Positions 18,579 through 29,052 of a stretch of DNA of 33,681 nt are shown here, piece after piece. The notes below the pieces were generated by a model that was not told where the DNA came from, did no database searches, and was given only the letters and a program-made list of their open reading frames with translations. The stretch comes from Kiritimatiellia bacterium (GTDB taxonomy: Bacteria; Verrucomicrobiota; Kiritimatiellia; RFP12; UBA1067): assembly GCA_017463935.1 (NCBI GenBank), contig JAFUEM010000037.1, positions 1-33,681 of the forward strand, given 5' to 3'. Each line of letters starts with the position of its first letter. Positions within the stretch are counted from its first letter, which is position 1. The translations under genes were made by a program, and so were the position numbers.

Positions 18579-18670
18579 CTAGGAGTCTAGAAGTCTAGAA
18601 TCCTAGAAGTCTAGAATCCTAGAATCCTAGAAGCCTAGAAGTCTAGAATCCTAGAATCCTAGAAACCTAG
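18579..18670. repeat. CTAG array 3: twelve 8-bp units
   Basis: CTAG recurs at exact 8-bp steps from 18579 to 18667 (twelve copies). The inner tetramers are nearly all AAGT, AATC or AAGC, so it is the most regular of the three arrays. It lies in the divergent intergenic region between the sialidase operon and mnmG, next to the coding-strand switch. Just left of it (about 18550-18575) more degenerate copies (TTTAGAAGTTTGGAATC) suggest decay at the edge. Confidence 0.92.
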
Positions 18671-18967
18671 GCTCCCGCAGCCGATGCGCTGACGATCTCT
18701 TATGGAAAGTTGATACAGCCCCTCATTATTGATACTTATCGCAAAATTGTTGATAACTCTTTGACAACTGTTGACATAAGATTACATTTTTCCTATTGAC
18801 AAAACAGCCGCCCGGCGTTGAAACCCCCTTTTTATTGGGTTTTGAGCAATAATGACACAGAGACATGTCGCATAATACTCTTCTTTTCATTGTTTACAAA
18901 TCCGTTGATAATTTGGTATAATAATCTTGTCAGGGTTGGACAAAACGAATTGAGAGACACAACACCA
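18671..18967. other. Candidate replication-origin region at the coding-strand switch
   Basis: This is a 297-nt AT-richer non-coding stretch between divergent transcription units. It contains TGTTGATAA (18748-18756) and CGTTGATAA (18903-18911), which are reverse complements of TTATCAACA/TTATCAACG, and TGTTGACAT (18769-18777). All supported genes to the left run leftward and all to the right run rightward, as expected if forks depart from here. No canonical TTATCCACA box is seen here. The assignment is inference; the AT-rich cluster at 26217-26325 is a competing candidate. Confidence 0.45.
18893..18922 (+). promoter_or_regulatory. mnmG: mnmG promoter, overlapped by a DnaA-like box
   Basis: TTTACA (18893-18898), an 18-nt spacer, then TATAAT (18917-18922) with an extended TGG just upstream. 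A GTTGATAA element (18903-18911) lies in the spacer, so its binding protein would compete with RNA polymerase. Confidence 0.6.
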
Positions 18968-21376
18968 ATGAGCAACAATCTATATGACGTGATTGTGGTC
19001 GGCGGCGGCCATGCCGGGTGCGAAGCCGCCCTCGCCGCCGCGCGGATGGGCGCACGCACCCTTCTTGTGACCGCCCAGACAGCCGCCATCGCGCGAATGC
19101 CGTGCAATCCGTCGATCGGCGGCCTCGCCAAGAGCCACCTCGTCTACGAACTCGACGCGCTGGGCGGTGAAATGGGCCGAAATGCCGACGCGACGGCGCT
19201 GCAGGTCAAGACGCTGAACCTCTCGCGCGGCCCGGCCGTGCGGGCGACGCGCGCGCAGTGCGCCAAGCGGGAATACGCCGCACGGATGCAGGCGGTCATC
19301 GCCCGCCAGCCGAATCTGACCGTGCTTGAAGATGCCGTCATCGGCATCGAGACGGAAGGCGATACACATAATTTAAACGGCGAAAATTCCTCCTTTTCAC
19401 CCGCGAGCAATTCAGTCGATTCGATCACCTCGTTTCCATCGAGTTCCTGCGAAAGCCCAACAACAAACCCATCAAGCCCATCTCGCGCCCCTCTGACCGC
19501 CCGTGCGACGGGCGTTTGGACCGAAAAGAACGGTCTGATTGCAGCAAAAACCGTTGTCATCACCTCGGGGACGACGCTACGCGGGCGTATTTGGATTGGA
19601 AAAGAGTCCTCGGAAAGCGGCGGCGACGGTCGCCCGGCTGTCAATCAACTGTCAGCGTGTCTTGAACGCCTTGGTTTCGACCTGATCCGCCTGAAAACGG
19701 GTACGCCGCCCCGTTTGAAGGCTTCCAGCTGCGATTTTACCAAGTGTCAGCGGCAGGATGGCGAATTTCCGCGTCCACTGTTCCACGTGGAACACGCCGA
19801 AACCATTGTTCCACGTGGAACAAATCAATCGGCTCCAACAACAGAGGCTGATTCACAATCGACGCCGCAATCTGATTTGGACAGTCAACCGGATGCAATT
19901 GTTCCACGTGGAACAATTCATGGTTCGGATGTGGCAGTGAATGATCATTGTACACGCCCGAACACTGTTTCAACCGCATTGGACAGTTCAGATATTCCAC
20001 GTGGAACAATCGGTGAAGCCGCCGTGCAACCAGACAACGGGAACGCAACTTTAAGTGTATCCAAGGCAGAAAATCTCATTGTTCCACGTGGAACAATCGG
20101 TGAATCCGCCGTGCAACCAGACAATGAGAACGCAGCTTTAAGTGTATCCAAGGCAGAAAATCTCATTGTTCCACGTGGAACAATCGGTGAAGCCTCCGTG
20201 CAACCAGCCAACGAGAACGCAGCTTTAAGTGTGCCCACGGAAACCAAGACAGCAAATCCTACTGTTCCACGTGGAACATTGGGTGAATTTCCGTGCTGGA
20301 TGACGCACACAACGCCGGAAACGCACCAAATCATCCGCGAAAATCTCGACCGTTCGGCCCTCTACGGCGGGGCAATCCATGGTACGGGCGTGCGCTATTG
20401 CCCGTCCATCGAGGATAAAATTGTCCGCTTTGCCGACGCGCAGCAGCACCATGTGATGCTGGAGCCAGAGGATTCGGCCGGCACCATCATCTATCCGAAC
20501 GGTTTGAGTTGTTCCTTTCCGCGCGACGTACAGGAACGGATGGTACATTCCGTTCCGGGACTCGAACATGCCGAATTTCTTGCGTATGCGTATGCGATTG
20601 AATATGACGGCATTGACGCGCGAGAACTCACGCACGCCCTCGAAGCGAAGCGGATTGACGGACTCTTCTTTGCCGGTCAGATCAACGGCACGACCGGCTA
20701 CGAAGAAGCGGCCGCCCAAGGGTTGATGGCCGGGATCAATGCGGCGCTGCGGACGCAAGGACGGCCGCCGCTCGTCTTGAGCCGCCAGGATGCCTATATC
20801 GGCGTCATGATTGATGATCTCGTCACGAAAGGCACGGATGAACCGTATCGCATGTTTACGAGCCGCGCCGAGCGCCGGTTGCTGCTGCGGCAGGACAATG
20901 CGCGCTTTCGGCTCGTCGAGGCGGCCGATAGAGCAGGAATTGTCGGAAAAGACAAGATTGCAGCCACGCGCGCGGTGAAAGCGTGGCTGGAACAGGTTGA
21001 AAAAGAGAAAAGAGAGATCGAGAGTCTGCTGAATGCGCACGAAGAGATATTGAAACATGATAACTGTGAGATCAGCCGATGGTTCAGCGCGGCGGAGATT
21101 CTTGAAGAAGAGAAGATTATACGACATTATGCACCCTATCTCGAACAGGAGGAAAAAGCGGCCAATCGCGCCAAACAGGACGAAAACATCAAGATTCCGC
21201 GTTGGCTCGACTATGCGCGCTGCACAGCCGTGCGCTTCGAGAGCCGCGAGAAGCTGAAAAAGTACCGCCCGGAGACGCTGGCGCAGGCCGCACGCATCCC
21301 CGGCGTCAATCCGGCTGACATCGCCGTCTTGGCTGTCATCATCAAACGCGGCCATTTTCCCGTTATCAACAAATGA
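18968..21376 (+). CDS. mnmG: MnmG tRNA uridine-34 modification enzyme with parS-bearing insert
   Basis: MnmG (GidA), with MnmE, installs the aminomethyl-type group on wobble uridine 34 of tRNAs, using FAD and methylene-tetrahydrofolate. The protein is 802 residues, versus about 620-630 for the family. The FAD motif GGGHAG is at 12-17. Catalytic cysteines are kept: MPCNPSIGG (Cys46) and YCPSIEDK (Cys478, equivalent to Cys277 in E. coli). [15 protein letters not shown] and the C-terminal helical domain ([11 protein letters not shown]) are intact, so the enzyme is probably active. Extra length comes from a Ser-rich insert (about 130-180) and a large one (about 271-437) carrying seven parS-like palindromes. 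The start at 18968 matches the family N-terminus; the in-frame ATG at 18818 is rejected because the promoter lies after it. dnaA follows by 94 nt. Confidence 0.95.
19779..20278. repeat. Cluster of seven parS-like centromere sites inside mnmG
   Basis: The palindrome TGTTCCACGTGGAACA occurs perfectly at 19779-19794, 19807-19822, 19900-19915, 20080-20095, 20167-20182 and 20263-20278. It occurs once with one mismatch (TATTCCACGTGGAACA) at 19993-20008. This is the known form of chromosomal parS, the ParB-binding site (family consensus TGTTNCACGTGNAACA). Start-to-start spacings are 28, 93, 93, 87, 87 and 96 bp. The last five are multiples of three, so those sites are all read as (V/I)PRGT, while the first is read as FHVE. 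No other copy was seen in the window. ParA and ParB genes are not in the window. Confidence 0.93.
19994..20254 (+). repeat. 87-bp (29-codon) tandem repeat carrying parS
   Basis: Three tandem units begin at 19994, 20081 and 20168, each starting with the parS core and encoding (I/V)PRGTIGE, then a segment like [13 protein letters not shown] and SKAENL. Units one and two are nearly identical. Unit three keeps about 65 bp and then diverges. The unit length is an exact multiple of three, so copy number can change without breaking mnmG. Confidence 0.85.
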
Positions 21377-21385
21377 TGTTGATAA
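21363..21385. promoter_or_regulatory. Inverted pair of DnaA-like boxes before dnaA
   Basis: TTATCAACA (21363-21371) overlaps the end of mnmG and TGTTGATAA (21377-21385) follows in opposite orientation, 5 nt apart. They lie just upstream of the dnaA promoter, where DnaA autoregulation would act. Confidence 0.55.
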
Positions 21386-21470: not shown

Positions 21471-22886
21471 ATGAGCAACGAAAAGATTGACCTCGCAATG
21501 AAGGAACTGTGGGAGCGCGCCAAGGCGATCTTCCTGTCCACGTTGCGCTCTGACGAGGAGAAGAGCCAGGCCACGCGCTATTTCTCGATGATCACATCGG
21601 TGTGCGCGGAGGACGGTGTCTTCAAGATTCTGACGCTCAACAGCTTTGCGGCGGATTTCCTCAAGACCGAATACGCCGACCGGCTGAAGACGTGCCTTGA
21701 CCTCGCGGGCGGCGACAAGTCGCTGAGCCTTGCCTTTCTGTGCAGCCCGTCGGCGCAGCCGCCGATCATCCTGCCGCCGTCGCCGACTGCGGCCGCCGCG
21801 CCCAGTCGCGCCGTCAGCACGTTCATCTCGACAATGCCGCTCAACGACGACTACACGTTCGGCGAGTTCGTGGAAGGGCCGTCCAACAGCTACGCCTACG
21901 CCGCGGCGAAGGGCGTCGCGGAGCATCCGGGCGAGATCGGCTTCAACCCGCTCTTCATCCACGGCGGCACGGGTCTCGGCAAGACGCACCTCATGCAGGC
22001 GATCGGCAACGAGGTGCACCGGAAAAATCCCAATCTCGCCGTCTGCTACCTGACGACCGAAACGTTCCTGAACGAATACGTCAATTCGCTGCAGAAGGGG
22101 CGCGCGGCAATCACTGAGTTCCAGAACAAGTACCGCAAGATCGACGTGCTGCTTGTCGACGACGTGCAGTTTCTCCAGAAGGGCAAGCAGTTCCAGGAGG
22201 AATTCTTCAACACGTTCAACGCGCTGAAGGACGCGCACAAGCAGATTGTCATGACGTCCGACGTCGCGCCGAAGAATCTGTCGGTTCTCGAGGAGCGGCT
22301 TATCTCGCGCTTCGAGGGCGGTATGGTGCAGGAGATCGAGTCGCCCAGCTACGAGACGCGCCTGGCGATTCTCCAGAAGAAGGCCGACGGCATCACGCCC
22401 GTCATTCCCGACTACGCCATCCGCTTCATCGCCGACCGCATCAAGAGCCACGTGCGCGCGATGGAAGGCGCGCTCGCGAAGATCAAGATCGCGATGCTCC
22501 TCAATCCCGGCGTGTCGCTCACGAACGAGATGATGACGCGCGCCTTGAAGGACCTGATTGAAAAGGAGCACAACATCAAGAAGCTGACGATCCGCGAAAT
22601 TCAGGAGGCGGTCGCGCGCAAGTACGGCGTGACGATCGAACAGATACTTTCGCCGGAGCGCACGCAGTCGCTCGTGACGCCGCGGCAACTCGCAATGTAC
22701 ATTTCGCGCAAGTACTCGTCGAAGAGTCTTCAGGAAATCTCCGAACCGTTCGGCAAGACGCACGCAACCGTTCTGCATGGCGTAAAAGCCATCACCAAAC
22801 GCCTCGACGTCGAAGAGGAACTGCGCGAAACGCTGCGCCAGATCCTCAACGAATTCGGCATCAACCCGGACGAGACCGTGAATTGA
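21471..22886 (+). CDS. dnaA: Chromosomal replication initiator DnaA
   Basis: This 471-residue initiator binds origin boxes, oligomerises with ATP, and melts the origin. Domain I (about 1-80) and a short Pro/Ala linker precede the AAA+ domain: Walker A GGTGLGKTHL (Lys171), Walker B LLVDDVQFL, sensor MTSDVAPKNL, and arginine finger region ERLISRFEGG. Domain IV has the helix-turn-helix (IREIQEAVARKYGV, VTPRQLAMYISRKY). The recognition signature, usually GGRDHTTV, is here GKTHATV (about 428-434). It is one residue shorter with the Asp and first Thr replaced, which may change box specificity. The 5' spacing and start are consistent with the family N-terminus, but the ribosome site is weak (GAAAG). 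dnaN follows in the same orientation. Confidence 0.97.
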   Translation: MSNEKIDLAMKELWERAKAIFLSTLRSDEEKSQATRYFSMITSVCAEDGVFKILTLNSFAADFLKTEYADRLKTCLDLAGGDKSLSLAFLCSPSAQPPIILPPSPTAAAAPSRAVSTFISTMPLNDDYTFGEFVEGPSNSYAYAAAKGVAEHPGEIGFNPLFIHGGTGLGKTHLMQAIGNEVHRKNPNLAVCYLTTETFLNEYVNSLQKGRAAITEFQNKYRKIDVLLVDDVQFLQKGKQFQEEFFNTFNALKDAHKQIVMTSDVAPKNLSVLEERLISRFEGGMVQEIESPSYETRLAILQKKADGITPVIPDYAIRFIADRIKSHVRAMEGALAKIKIAMLLNPGVSLTNEMMTRALKDLIEKEHNIKKLTIREIQEAVARKYGVTIEQILSPERTQSLVTPRQLAMYISRKYSSKSLQEISEPFGKTHATVLHGVKAITKRLDVEEELRETLRQILNEFGINPDETVN

Positions 22887-23161: not shown

Positions 23162-24256
23162 ATGAAATTCAAAATCGCTCGCTCCAAGTTCCTCGAAGGA
23201 TTGAAGTCCGTGCAGAACATCGTCGTCGGCAAGGGGACGCTGCCGATCCTCAACAACGTCATGATCAACGCCGTCGGCGGCGAACTGACGATGACGACGA
23301 CGGATCTCGACATCTCCATCACGAGCGCGGTCGCCTGCGAAGTCGCGGAAGCGGGCGCGTCGACCCTGCCGGTGAAGCTGCTCGCGAACCTCGTGTCAAA
23401 GGCGGGCGAAGGCGAGATTGAGGTAGAGATTGATGCGCGCGAGCAGGCGACAATCGTCGCGGGCACCGCCAAGTACAAGCTCGCCGGCCTGTCTGAGAAG
23501 GAATTTCCGCGCCTGCCGAAGGATGACGAGGCGGCCAGCTATACGCTGCCGCAGCAGACGCTGCGCGAAATGTTCCGCAAGACGTCGTACGCCGCGTCGC
23601 AGGACGATACGCGCCGCACGCTGAAGGGCGTTCTCATGTCGTTCAAGGATTCAAAGCTGACGATGGTTGCGACCGACGGCCGCCGTCTCGCGCTCGTCGA
23701 GAACGAAATCGAGTTTCCGAAGGATGCCGAGCGCGACATTGTGCTGCCGTTCAAGGCGGTGCAGGAGCTCCAGCGCTCGCTCGCCGGCGACGGCAACGTC
23801 GAGATCGTCGTCCAGAAGAGCCAGGTCTGCTTCAAGCTCGGCGCGGTGATGATCTACTCGAAGCTCGTCGACGAGGTCTATCCCAACTACACGCAGGTCA
23901 TCCCGCGCGAATGCGCCGAGACGATCACCGTCGACCGTCAGGGACTCCTTGATGCGCTTGACCGCGCGAGCGTCATGACGATGGACGAGGCGCATTCAAC
24001 GAAGCTCATCTTCGACGGCAACCGCCTGACCGTCACGTCCGCCGCAAGCGACATCGGCGAGGCGAAGGACGAGGTCAACATCAAGTACGCGGGTGAGCGT
24101 CTCGAAATCCTCTTCAATCCAACGTACGTGATGGACTGCCTCAAGGCCATCGACGACGACGAGGTTGTCATCAACCTCAACGACGGTCATTCGCCGGCGG
24201 TCATCAAGTGCTCGATCCCGTTCCTCTACGTGCTGATGCCGCTGCGCATCAACTGA
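23162..24256 (+). CDS. dnaN: DNA polymerase III beta sliding clamp
   Basis: This 364-residue ring subunit encircles DNA and tethers the replicative polymerase. The three-fold clamp architecture fits: MKFKIARSKFLEGLKSVQNIV at the start, TLPILNNVMINA, a middle domain with SQDDTRRTLKGVLMSF and ATDGRRLALVE, and the C-terminal domain ending FLYVLMPLRIN, which carries the partner-binding cleft (VLMPLR is typical). Length is normal. A good ribosome site (AAGGAAAG) precedes ATG 23162, and its own -10 (TACAAT) is upstream. The methyltransferase gene starts 15 nt after the stop. Confidence 0.98.
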   Translation: MKFKIARSKFLEGLKSVQNIVVGKGTLPILNNVMINAVGGELTMTTTDLDISITSAVACEVAEAGASTLPVKLLANLVSKAGEGEIEVEIDAREQATIVAGTAKYKLAGLSEKEFPRLPKDDEAASYTLPQQTLREMFRKTSYAASQDDTRRTLKGVLMSFKDSKLTMVATDGRRLALVENEIEFPKDAERDIVLPFKAVQELQRSLAGDGNVEIVVQKSQVCFKLGAVMIYSKLVDEVYPNYTQVIPRECAETITVDRQGLLDALDRASVMTMDEAHSTKLIFDGNRLTVTSAASDIGEAKDEVNIKYAGERLEILFNPTYVMDCLKAIDDDEVVINLNDGHSPAVIKCSIPFLYVLMPLRIN

Positions 24257-24271: not shown

Positions 24272-25534
24272 ATGCGAATCTGGACGGACAGAAACTACCC
24301 GATCATCGTCTCCTGCGCGAAGGAACTGTCGCGCTGGACGGAGATTGAAGTGCGCGATCTCGGCTACAAGCCGATCGAAGTGACGGAAAACACGGTTGTC
24401 GTGCGCGGCGGCATGCGCGACGTGATGAAGCTCAACCTTTATCTGCGCACCGCCCATCGCGTGCTTGTGCCGCTCCTGCGCGCGGACTGCCGCAATATCC
24501 GCGACCTCTATGAGCTGGCGGTCTCGATCGACTGGGAAAATCTGATCGAGGCGGACGGCTACTTTTCGGTTTCATCCATCGTTCACAACTACACGATCCG
24601 CGACACGCGCCTGCCGTCGCTCTACACGAAGGACGCGATCGCCGACCGCATGCGCGAGAAGTGCCAGCGTCGTCCCGACTCGGGCGGCGAGAACCACGGC
24701 GCGGCCGTTTTCGTCTACTGGGAGCGCGACGAGGTCATCATCTATCTCGATACGTCGGGCGAGCCGCTGTCCAAGCGCGGCTACCGCAAGATCCCCGGTT
24801 CCGCGCCGATGCAGGAGACGCTCGCGGCGGCGTGCATCATGGCGCTGCACTGGGATCGCAGGACGCCGTTCATCTCGCCGATGTGCGGCAGCGGCACGCC
24901 GGCGATCGAAGCCGTGATGATGGCCGCGAACAAGGCGCCGGGTTCGCTCAAGGGACACTTCGCCTTCCAGTCCATCAAGGACTATCGGCGCATCATCCCC
25001 GGCGAAACGGCCCCGCGCGTGGCCCCGCGCCAGCACATGGGCGCGACGCCGGAGCAGATCTGGAAGGAGCTCGTTCTGGACGCGAAGGAGCAGGAGAACT
25101 TCACGGATCTGCCGAAGGTCATCGCGACCGACATTTCGCCCGACGCGGTCGAAAATGCGCACACCAATGCCATCGCGGCCGGTGTCGCGCCCTACATCGA
25201 TTTCAAGGCGTGCGATTTTGCCGAGACGCCGATCCCGGATGTTGCCGCGCCGGCCGGTCGGTCGAAGGGCGTCGTGTTCTTCAATCCGGAATACGGCATC
25301 CGTCTGGGCACACCCGAGGAGCTGGCGCCGATCTACGAGCGCATCGGAACGTTTCTTCACGAAAAATGCGCAGGCTACACGGGCGGCCTCATCACCGGCA
25401 ACCCGGACCTCGCGCGCCTCGTCAATCTCTACTACAAAACTCGCGTGCCGTTCTTCAACGGGCCGATCGACTGCCGGCTCTTCGTGTATCCGGGCTGCGA
25501 GCTGAAAGGACAAAATGAGTCAGCAAGCGTTTGA
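24272..25534 (+). CDS. THUMP-domain class I RNA methyltransferase (RlmL/YpsC-like)
   Basis: This 420-residue protein resembles the N2-guanine 23S rRNA methyltransferase part of RlmL. The N-terminal ferredoxin-like and THUMP region (residues 1-160, starting with IVSCAKELSRWTEIEVRDLGY) binds RNA. The SAM-dependent Rossmann domain has the PMCGSGTPAIEA motif (about 203-214), ATDISPDAVENAHTNA and CDFAETP. The catalytic motif, normally NPPYG, reads NPEYG at 338-342. It uses SAM in the cytoplasm to modify rRNA. No Shine-Dalgarno sequence precedes ATG 24272, which follows dnaN by 15 nt, so translational coupling is likely. The end overlaps the next gene by 20 nt. The exact target base is not certain. 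Confidence 0.88.
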   Translation: MRIWTDRNYPIIVSCAKELSRWTEIEVRDLGYKPIEVTENTVVVRGGMRDVMKLNLYLRTAHRVLVPLLRADCRNIRDLYELAVSIDWENLIEADGYFSVSSIVHNYTIRDTRLPSLYTKDAIADRMREKCQRRPDSGGENHGAAVFVYWERDEVIIYLDTSGEPLSKRGYRKIPGSAPMQETLAAACIMALHWDRRTPFISPMCGSGTPAIEAVMMAANKAPGSLKGHFAFQSIKDYRRIIPGETAPRVAPRQHMGATPEQIWKELVLDAKEQENFTDLPKVIATDISPDAVENAHTNAIAAGVAPYIDFKACDFAETPIPDVAAPAGRSKGVVFFNPEYGIRLGTPEELAPIYERIGTFLHEKCAGYTGGLITGNPDLARLVNLYYKTRVPFFNGPIDCRLFVYPGCELKGQNESASV

Positions 25535-26216
25535 CATAAACGAGTTCATCGAAAAGCCCCAGCCGCCGCCCGCGCCGGTCGCGGACAAGGCGGCTGAGCC
25601 CGCCGCTGCGGACGAGCCGCCGGAACTGGATGTGCAGAAGGCGGTTGTCGAGGAGCTGGCCGCCGAAAAGGTTGAACTTCACGAGCAGATCGCCGCGCGC
25701 GAATTGGAACTGGCGGCCCGCGCGTCTGAACTGGCGGCGCGTGAATCGGAGCTGGCCGCGCTCAAGGCGCAGGTCGCCGTCCTGAAGAGCGAAAACGCCA
25801 AGCTGTGCGCGGAAGCCGAATCGCTTCAGGCCCGCCTCGATGCGCGTCTCGCGCACGAACTGGACCAGCAGGAGCGCAACCCCAATTCGCTCGCGCTCCT
25901 TGACCGTGAAGTCGAACTGCCCGACCGATTCCCCGGCGAGACGCGCGACCATGTGCTGGAGGTCATCCGTGCCGCGCGCGACGAAGCCGAGCGCGAGGGC
26001 CGCGTGCGCCGCGCCCAGGTTCTGGAGGCGGTGCTCGTCGCGAACGAGCCGAGCGGCAATCTCGCGGCGCGCCGTGCGGAAGTGACGAAACTCTTTTCCG
26101 AGAACGGCAATATCGTCAACGGCACCGTCCTCGCGCGGTTGCAGGAGCTTGAAATTTCGCACAAGAACGGCGAAGAGTATCTCCTGCCGTCTGAAATTAT
26201 CAAGCGCGCGTTCTGA
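25515..26216 (+). CDS. Uncharacterised coiled-coil protein
   Basis: I do not recognise this 233-residue protein. It has a short N-terminal FDINEF motif, a Pro/Ala-rich disordered stretch (about 14-36), and a long heptad-rich coiled coil (about 40-120, with EELAAEKVELHEQIAARELELAAR and repeated ASELAARESELAAL). A compact acidic/basic helical C-terminal region follows (about 125-233, LPDRFPGETRDHVLEVIRAARDEAE). There is no signal peptide or membrane segment, so it is cytoplasmic. A clear ribosome site (AAAGGACAAA) precedes the ATG and it overlaps the methyltransferase by 20 nt. It ends exactly where the AT-rich TTATCAAC cluster begins. Position suggests a replication or nucleoid role, but that is only an inference. 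Confidence 0.8.
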   Translation: MSQQAFDINEFIEKPQPPPAPVADKAAEPAAADEPPELDVQKAVVEELAAEKVELHEQIAARELELAARASELAARESELAALKAQVAVLKSENAKLCAEAESLQARLDARLAHELDQQERNPNSLALLDREVELPDRFPGETRDHVLEVIRAARDEAEREGRVRRAQVLEAVLVANEPSGNLAARRAEVTKLFSENGNIVNGTVLARLQELEISHKNGEEYLLPSEIIKRAF

Positions 26217-26325
26217 TTATCAACTCACTTATCAACTTATAAACAAAAATAACATCTTATTTATGAACTTATCAACAGAAATATCAACTCAAAGTAAATA
26301 AGTTTATAATTAAGTTGATAAAGCC
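26217..26325. other. AT-rich cluster of TTATCAAC 9-mers, candidate oriC
   Basis: This 109-bp intergenic stretch is about 22% GC by hand count, in a GC-rich genome. It holds five related 9-mers: TTATCAACT (26217-26225), TTATCAACT (26229-26237), TTATCAACA (26269-26277), ATATCAACT (26281-26289), and reverse AGTTGATAA (26313-26321). The density of boxes plus a strongly AT-rich core fits a DNA-unwinding origin. It also contains the -10 (TATAAT, 26305-26310) of the next gene, so a role as operator for that gene is an alternative. Confidence 0.55.
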
Positions 26326-26838
26326 ATGATCCATCTCGATCCAAAATTCTGTTTCCGCATCCGGGACGCGCGCAAGGCGGCGCGGCTCTCGCAAAGCGAA
26401 CTGGCGGCGGAAGTCGGCTGCAAGCAATCGGCCCTGTCGATGTTCGAGCAGGGGGCCGGCACCAAGCTCAACGATGAAGTCGTCCAGCGCCTGGCGGCCA
26501 AGTTTTCAATCAAGCTGCCGTCGGCGGACGCGTCTGCGGCGGAATCGTCCGACGTGCCGCGCGCGGCATTTCTGCCGCGCCCGCTGCCGAACGCGCCCGT
26601 TGATCGGCGCGGCTTCTGCCCGAACGTCCACTGTCCCTCTCACCGCGTCTACGAGGTGGACGGTCGAACGTTTCTCAAACCCGACCGCGCAGCGCAGGAT
26701 CCCGTGGGCGGCCGCTTCTGCGCGGTCTGCGGCGAAATTCTCGAGCATGTGTGTCCGACGTGCGGCGGCCCGCTGCACGACGGCGCGGTCTGTTCCTTCT
26801 GCGGTTCGCCCTATCTGGCGCTCGCCAATAATTTTTAA
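26326..26838 (+). CDS. XRE-type HTH protein with zinc-ribbon C-terminus
   Basis: This 170-residue protein has an N-terminal Cro/C1-type helix-turn-helix (about residues 8-62, IRDARKAARLSQSELAAEVG then KQSALSMFEQG). A Ser/Ala/Pro linker and a Cys-rich C-terminus follow: CPNVHC near residue 99, then CAVCGE, CPTCGG and CSFCGSPY, enough for two zinc ribbons. It is probably a cytoplasmic DNA-binding regulator. Its promoter and start lie inside the TTATCAAC cluster, with a box overlapping the expected transcription start, and no Shine-Dalgarno sequence is present. Autorepression or an origin-binding role are both plausible. The combination of domains is not one I can name. Confidence 0.85.
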   Translation: MIHLDPKFCFRIRDARKAARLSQSELAAEVGCKQSALSMFEQGAGTKLNDEVVQRLAAKFSIKLPSADASAAESSDVPRAAFLPRPLPNAPVDRRGFCPNVHCPSHRVYEVDGRTFLKPDRAAQDPVGGRFCAVCGEILEHVCPTCGGPLHDGAVCSFCGSPYLALANNF

Positions 26839-29019: not shown

Positions 29020-29052
29020 TCGCGCTGAAAAATTGTAAGGAGGCTTATCCAC

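What the first reader, a model, noticed from the sequence alone, without database searches (positions are those of the whole stretch)
26217..26325. AT-rich TTATCAAC cluster that could be oriC
Five TTATCAAC-type 9-mers sit in 109 bp at about 22% GC, downstream of dnaA-dnaN. Box clustering plus an AT-rich core is the hallmark of an unwinding origin, and it is the most AT-biased stretch I saw in the window.
Basis: partly seen in the sequence, partly recalled or inferred. Interest (0 to 1): 0.6.

Follow-up and report, generated by a model that had tools for sequence, protein, structure and literature searches.

The report
DnaA-box array at XRE promoter
The AT-rich repeat cluster is a real, conserved array of probable binding sites for the replication starter protein DnaA, next to a small regulator gene near the chromosome's replication origin; it is more likely a control or titration site than the place where replication starts.

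Summary
The 109 bp are 22% GC, the most AT-rich in the window, with four TTATCAAC and seven TTATNAAC words; 0 of 5000 shuffles match. The window is from an uncultured Kiritimatiellae bacterium. TTATNAACA is probably this class's DnaA box: it is enriched beside dnaA even in 28 class loci from genomes without a detected XRE gene, and DnaA's box-reading helix lacks the usual Asp in 70 of 72 proteins. The array lies upstream of an XRE/zinc-ribbon gene across the order (three or more boxes in 23 of 30 loci); in some genera it follows that gene far from dnaA, in three genomes it sits by dnaN without it. The oriC reading is weaker: 6 of 16 genus genomes show a strong GC-skew switch and none of the six intervals includes the array. 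The window's own skew cannot decide, and some other genera do switch at the array. Best reading: an origin-proximal DnaA-box array that controls the XRE gene and titrates DnaA, with the origin core more likely at 18.69-18.97 kb. Binding and function are inferred.

The parts
26217..26325 (.). AT-rich array of DnaA-type boxes between the coiled-coil gene and the XRE gene
26217..26225 (+). box TTATCAACT
26229..26237 (+). box TTATCAACT, 12 bp start-to-start from the first
26237..26245 (+). box TTATAAACA
26261..26269 (+). box TTATGAACT
26269..26277 (+). box TTATCAACA
26281..26289 (+). degenerate box ATATCAACT
26301..26309 (-). box TTATAAACT
26313..26321 (-). box TTATCAACT, 12 bp from the previous one
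26326..26838 (+). XRE-type HTH protein with C-terminal Cys-rich (zinc-ribbon-like) part; the gene that usually travels with the array
   Evidence: PF01381 E 4.1e-10; PF12773 DZR E 2.3e-4, below its cut-off
25515..26216 (+). coiled-coil-like protein of unknown function, ends where the array begins
   Evidence: (only a sub-cut-off Pfam match), conserved position
21471..22886 (+). dnaA
   Evidence: TIGR00362 444 bits
23162..24256 (+). dnaN
24272..25534 (+). RlmL-like THUMP/methyltransferase
21363..21385 (.). convergent pair of TTATCAACA boxes just upstream of dnaA (overlaps the mnmG stop); start distance 15 kept in several relatives
18690..18967 (.). intergenic block upstream of mnmG at the divergent gene junction, with TTATCAAC boxes at 18749(-) and 18904(-); favoured candidate for the origin core
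18968..21376 (+). mnmG (gidA) with an insertion carrying the palindromes below
   Evidence: TIGR00136
19779..20278 (.). six perfect TGTTCCACGTGGAACA palindromes plus one with one mismatch (parS-like) inside mnmG

Best explanation
The cluster is an origin-proximal array of lineage-type DnaA boxes (TTATNAACA) that forms the promoter region of the XRE/zinc-ribbon gene. DnaA binds the boxes side by side (12 bp start-to-start, that is, a 3-bp gap), controls transcription of the XRE gene, and is partly titrated there while the locus is at high copy after initiation. In this genus the origin core that unwinds is more likely the boxed, AT-rich block upstream of mnmG (18.69-18.97 kb), about 7.4 kb to the left; the array would be an outlying control site or an auxiliary part of an extended origin. 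Shown: the boxes, their statistics, their conservation with the XRE gene, and their presence at dnaA without XRE. Inferred: DnaA binding, effect on transcription, titration and the site of unwinding.
For: Boxes are far beyond chance. TTATNAACA is enriched at dnaA flanks, including 28 class loci from genomes without a detected XRE gene (500 bp upstream: TTATCAACA 11 against 0.2 in shuffles, TTATTAACA 14 against 0.2); 59 of 72 loci have at least one there. The DnaA helix-5 motif has T/N/K/S/E/Q where E. coli has Asp (recalled) in 70 of 72 (2 Asp); TTATNAACA:TTATNCACA boxes are 70:10 with Thr and 23:18 with Asn. The array is upstream of XRE with at least 3 boxes in 23 of 30 loci, and box pairs occur in few other places per genome. 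Same-direction 12 bp is the commonest spacing in 15 genus clusters (18 pairs); E. coli DnaA prefers pairs 2 or 3 bp apart (PMC11317965, abstract and passages). In G103, G148 and G132 the XRE gene with boxes is on another contig than dnaA and shows no skew switch, while the skew minimum is just after dnaA, so the array can exist as a non-origin element. Genus skew switch: 6 of 16 genomes with z>6, 0 of 6 intervals include the array; in G006, where mnmG is inverted, its upstream block and the switch (-349) both lie next to dnaA.
Against: No binding data exist. In four genomes of genus g3 (G028, G085, G078, G071) the cumulative skew minimum lies at the homologous array, and G141 and G146 switch near it. 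UBA7008, the nearest relative, has its local minimum at +5.36 kb. In the window, 5 of 7 TTATNAAC boxes end in T, not the A preferred near dnaA. Ten of 16 genus genomes have weak or no switch, two of them negative skew throughout. The mnmG-upstream block is no denser in conserved columns (46 in 330 bp) than dnaA-upstream (24 in 150) and only slightly denser than XRE-upstream (18 in 150). The Thr-against-Asn box comparison ignores shared ancestry.
Confidence: 0.58

Rival explanations
1. The array is oriC itself: DnaA binds the boxes and the AT-rich 109 bp unwind, with the XRE gene merely next to it.
For: AT-richest point of the window with the densest boxes; cumulative skew minimum at the homologous array in G028, G085, G078 and G071; G146 change-point interval +3.0 to +6.0 kb includes it; local minimum beside it in UBA7008.
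Against: Six of six strongly switching genus genomes place the switch elsewhere; the gene-direction junction in the window is at 18.5-18.97 kb, so this origin would make mnmG-dnaA-dnaN head-on to replication; relocated arrays in G103, G148 and G132 have no switch.
Confidence: 0.2
2. The array is the operator of the XRE protein, which represses its own gene by binding TTATCAAC half-sites.
For: It touches the XRE start; array and gene stay together when moved away from dnaA; 20-bp palindromic pairs are common in g3; the XRE recognition-helix region is well conserved.
Against: Arrays at the skew minimum in G085, G071 and G078 have no XRE beside them, and their XRE genes lack boxes; the boxes are enriched at dnaA in genomes with no detected XRE; same-direction pairs dominate in the window's genus, which does not suit a two-fold dimer.
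Confidence: 0.15
3. A chance AT-rich spacer with no function.
For: None found.
Against: Shuffles and conservation over several families.
Confidence: 0.01

Closest known systems
oriC-proximal DnaA-box clusters (DBCs) of Bacillus subtilis, Okumura et al. 2012 (seen only as described in the review PMC5295017, passages)
   Same: DnaA-box clusters outside the origin core; thought to hold DnaA and restrain initiation.
   Different: Here the box is TTATNAACA, one array is seen rather than six, it is tied to one XRE gene, and no deletion data exist.
DnaA-regulated promoters with several DnaA boxes (E. coli double boxes: PMC11317965, passages; B. subtilis sda promoter: PMC4447404, passages)
   Same: Several closely spaced boxes in a promoter region.
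   Different: The target gene is an XRE/zinc-ribbon protein not known to me as a DnaA target.
Bipartite oriC flanking dnaA (B. subtilis, described in PMC5295017, passages)
   Same: More than one boxed intergenic around dnaA.
   Different: The array lies several genes away from the mnmG-side candidate and shows no strong switch in the genus.
E. coli oriC next to gidA (mnmG) (PMC4446571, start of abstract in the search listing)
   Same: The favoured origin core here is also next to mnmG.
   Different: dnaA is adjacent to mnmG here, and parS-like sites lie inside mnmG.

Membership tests
bacterial chromosomal origin (oriC) | cluster of DnaA boxes beyond chance | tested here: met
   (box identity inferred from enrichment at dnaA)
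bacterial chromosomal origin (oriC) | AT-rich stretch | tested here: met
   22% GC, lowest in the window
bacterial chromosomal origin (oriC) | switch of GC skew at the site | tested here: inconclusive
   window and UBA7008 too weak; 0 of 6 strong genus intervals include it; point minima in four g3 genomes do
bacterial chromosomal origin (oriC) | unwinding by DnaA and autonomous replication | not testable with these tools
   needs experiment
bacterial chromosomal origin (oriC) | DnaA-trio element beside the boxes | not tested
   no call made
origin-proximal DnaA-box cluster (DBC type) | box cluster in an intergenic region near, not in, the origin core | tested here: inconclusive
   intergenic and origin-proximal; core position not settled
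origin-proximal DnaA-box cluster (DBC type) | DnaA binding and effect on initiation timing | not testable with these tools
   needs experiment
XRE autoregulatory operator | site lies directly upstream of the XRE gene | tested here: met
XRE autoregulatory operator | site occurs only with the XRE gene | tested here: not met
   G085, G071, G078 arrays without XRE nearby; TTATNAACA at dnaA in genomes without detected XRE

The most novel reading that the evidence does not exclude
Within one order the replication switch may have moved between three DnaA-box intergenics (upstream of mnmG, after dnaA, and this array), while DnaA's box-reading helix shifted the box to TTATNAACA; the XRE/zinc-ribbon gene coupled to the array would be an origin-linked regulator whose dose or DnaA control sets initiation.
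Probability: 0.2. Interest if true: 0.6.

Novelty: new variant of a known kind. Interest (0 to 1): 0.4.

Why it matters
It gives a testable DnaA-box consensus (TTATNAACA, not TTATNCACA) for a little-studied class, with a matching change in the DnaA helix that reads the box; origin finders that rely on TTATCCACA could miss such origins. It also names an origin-linked XRE/zinc-ribbon gene as a candidate DnaA target or regulator, and offers a set of relatives where array, gene and skew switch have come apart.

Tried and rejected
Canonical box search: TTATNCACA with one mismatch gives 12 sites against 5.7 expected; the two exact TTATCCACA lie at 29045 and 33420, away from the cluster.

The window's own skew was tried as a change-point and is not informative.

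A first table of the DnaA helix-5 residue misread at least two rows because of a loose pattern (L012, L016); one search replaces it.

I first noted the mnmG-upstream block as the most conserved intergenic (note); per base it is not, and the report says so.

The third convergent box pair of the genome (G000:C262:2369) looked like a possible further DnaA target; it appears to lie inside a coding frame, so I take it as chance. The promoter scan of the array finds only minus-strand matches and does not identify an XRE promoter in the window; in many relatives a TTGC-N17-CATAAT-like promoter follows the array (read by eye), which I did not test statistically.

A YabA-like role for the coiled-coil or zinc-ribbon protein was considered (YabA as described in PMC5295017) and left as speculation; no sequence test was made.

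Rows left out: the near-duplicate UBA7008, plus G007 for mnmG-upstream and G001 for XRE-upstream. One search used the 30 loci given (28 of them new) for 40 of 44 genomes with a match. One search used the 30 best XRE loci; 52 of 143 genomes had a match. Searches covered 30 chosen genomes.

Full report
What the window is. The contig (33,681 bp of a 2.79-Mb, 354-contig genome) has dnaA at 21471-22886, dnaN at 23162-24256, an RlmL-like gene, a coiled-coil-like gene (25515-26216) and an XRE gene (26326-26838). Named relatives by DnaA are Kiritimatiellae/Lentisphaerae/Verrucomicrobia metagenome genomes, the nearest UBA7008 at 96% DnaA identity. Every gene identified by Pfam left of 18.51 kb is on the minus strand (MatE, TPP enzyme, semialdehyde dehydrogenase, OAD subunits, UvrB, SSF, BNR); mnmG to XRE are on the plus strand. 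The divergent junction is therefore at 18.51-18.97 kb.

The observation. It is correct and slightly understated: four TTATCAAC and seven TTATNAAC in 109 bp at 22% GC. Shuffles of the same AT-rich stretch give 0.01 and 0.08, 0 of 5000 as many. It is the AT-richest 109 bp of the window.

Whose boxes they are. The same word lies in a convergent pair just before dnaA (21363-21385) and twice upstream of mnmG (18749, 18904). Over 72 DnaA loci of the class, TTATCAACA and relatives are enriched in the 500 bp before and 320 bp after dnaA against dinucleotide shuffles, most strongly upstream, including 28 loci from genomes with no XRE match. At least one TTATNAACA is there in 59 of 72 loci. DnaA's helix-5 start, which reads the box (E. 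coli residues 432-435, PMC5043019 passages), has T/N/K/S/E/Q before the His in 70 of 72 and Asp in 2; that E. coli has Asp there is recalled. TTATNAACA against TTATNCACA is 70:10 with Thr, 19:0 with Lys, 23:18 with Asn, 4:1 with Asp; these counts are not corrected for ancestry, and the two Asp loci do not prefer the canonical box. I infer that TTATNAACA is the class's DnaA box.

Conservation of the array. The XRE protein has a match in 52 of 143 class genomes. Of the 30 loci returned, 23 have three or more TTAT[C/A]AAC boxes within 250 bp upstream of XRE, two have most of them further up (L071, L072) and five have none (L064, L066, L068, L069, L079). In 30 genomes searched for same-direction and convergent box pairs, most places lie at XRE or dnaA or dnaN, with a reversed-pattern control of 0 to 3 per genome and strand. 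The commonest spacing is same-direction 12 bp in 15 genus clusters, convergent 12 bp in six g3 clusters and convergent 24 bp in eleven others of the family. E. coli DnaA in vivo prefers pairs 2 or 3 bp apart, that is 11 or 12 bp start-to-start (PMC11317965).

Array and XRE come apart both ways. In G103, G148 and G132 the XRE gene with its boxes is on a different contig from dnaA (127 kb inside a 255-kb contig in G103); there is no skew switch there, while the skew minimum is just after dnaA. In G085, G071 and G078 the array is just downstream of dnaN and the XRE gene is elsewhere without boxes. The first set argues that the array belongs with XRE, the second that it belongs with DnaA and the origin. 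A DnaA-box array acting on the XRE promoter, near or at the origin, fits both.

Is it oriC? Change-points of GC skew within 40 kb were fitted for 16 genus genomes. Six have z>6: G001 (-1.1 kb from dnaA), G012 (-2.2), G006 (-0.3), G016 (-1.5), G130 (-1.0) and G009 (+3.0; interval +2 to +4). The array lies at +4.6 to +5.0 kb (off the contig in G001), outside all six 90% intervals, though in G130 by only about 0.3 kb. The intervals come from a rough block bootstrap. The other ten are weak or show no switch: G011 and G145 are negative throughout; the window gives +7.5 (interval +0.5 to +9.0) and UBA7008 +7.6 (+0.5 to +9.1), both uninformative; UBA7008's local cumulative minimum is +5.36 kb; G004 is limited by the end of the stretch. 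In g3 the cumulative minimum is at the array in G028 (+4.28 kb), G085 (+4.43), G078 (+3.68) and G071 (+4.09), but not in G119, G024 or G019, and the change-point intervals are broad or, in G078 and G071, not usable. In other family members G146 (+3.0 to +6.0) includes it, G141 (cumulative minimum +3.85) is near it, and G154 (-6.0 to -2.0) excludes it.

Where the origin more likely is. The block upstream of mnmG has boxes and AT-rich sequence in most of the genus, aligns over 13 genomes with 46 columns at 90% or more (0 or 1 in shuffles), and in G006, where mnmG is inverted, lies beside dnaA, as does the skew switch. Its conserved-column density is not higher than that of dnaA-upstream DNA. parS-like palindromes lie in or within about 0.5 kb of mnmG in 22 of 26 genomes; in G007 and G085 they are on contigs where I did not place mnmG, in G141 the only site is elsewhere, and G154 has none (placed). 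I put the origin core at 18.69-18.97 kb with moderate confidence, about 0.55.

Mechanism proposed. DnaA occupies the array cooperatively, controls the XRE promoter and is partly titrated near the origin, as proposed for B. subtilis DnaA-box clusters outside the origin (described in PMC5295017, passages). Box presence, statistics and conservation are shown; binding, regulation and titration are inferred.

Literature. A search for DnaA box with TTATCAACA found one paper, on Cyanothece, where one predicted box of the linear chromosome has that sequence (passages). Searches with Kiritimatiellae or Kiritimatiellota and origin terms listed no paper that mentions either name among the rows shown, and Verrucomicrobia with DnaA box and oriC listed six, none on this by title. 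I therefore found no description of this array or box in that library; other literature was not searched.

Noticed in passing
window 19779-20278 (inside mnmG 18968-21376): Six perfect TGTTCCACGTGGAACA palindromes and one near-perfect, parS-like, encoded as repeats (VPRGT units) in an insertion of the MnmG protein; 22 of 26 genomes searched have such sites in or next to mnmG and few elsewhere.
   Followed up: partly
window 18580-18680: Run of about 9-bp repeats of the TCTAGAATC/CCTAGAAGT kind just left of the boxed block upstream of mnmG.
   Followed up: no
DnaA loci of the class (L003-L023, L080-L102, L183-L210): DnaA helix-5 motif is mostly T/N/K/S-H-A in the class instead of Asp-H-T (recalled E. 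coli), together with a TTATNAACA box.
   Followed up: partly
G016:C38:2375-2854 and G016:C30:31725-32222: One genome holds two XRE copies, both with a box array upstream; the C38 copy could be contamination.
   Followed up: no
G092, G150, G158: Three genomes of genus g10 lack both dnaA and XRE matches, as expected if the origin region drops out of assemblies as one piece.
   Followed up: no
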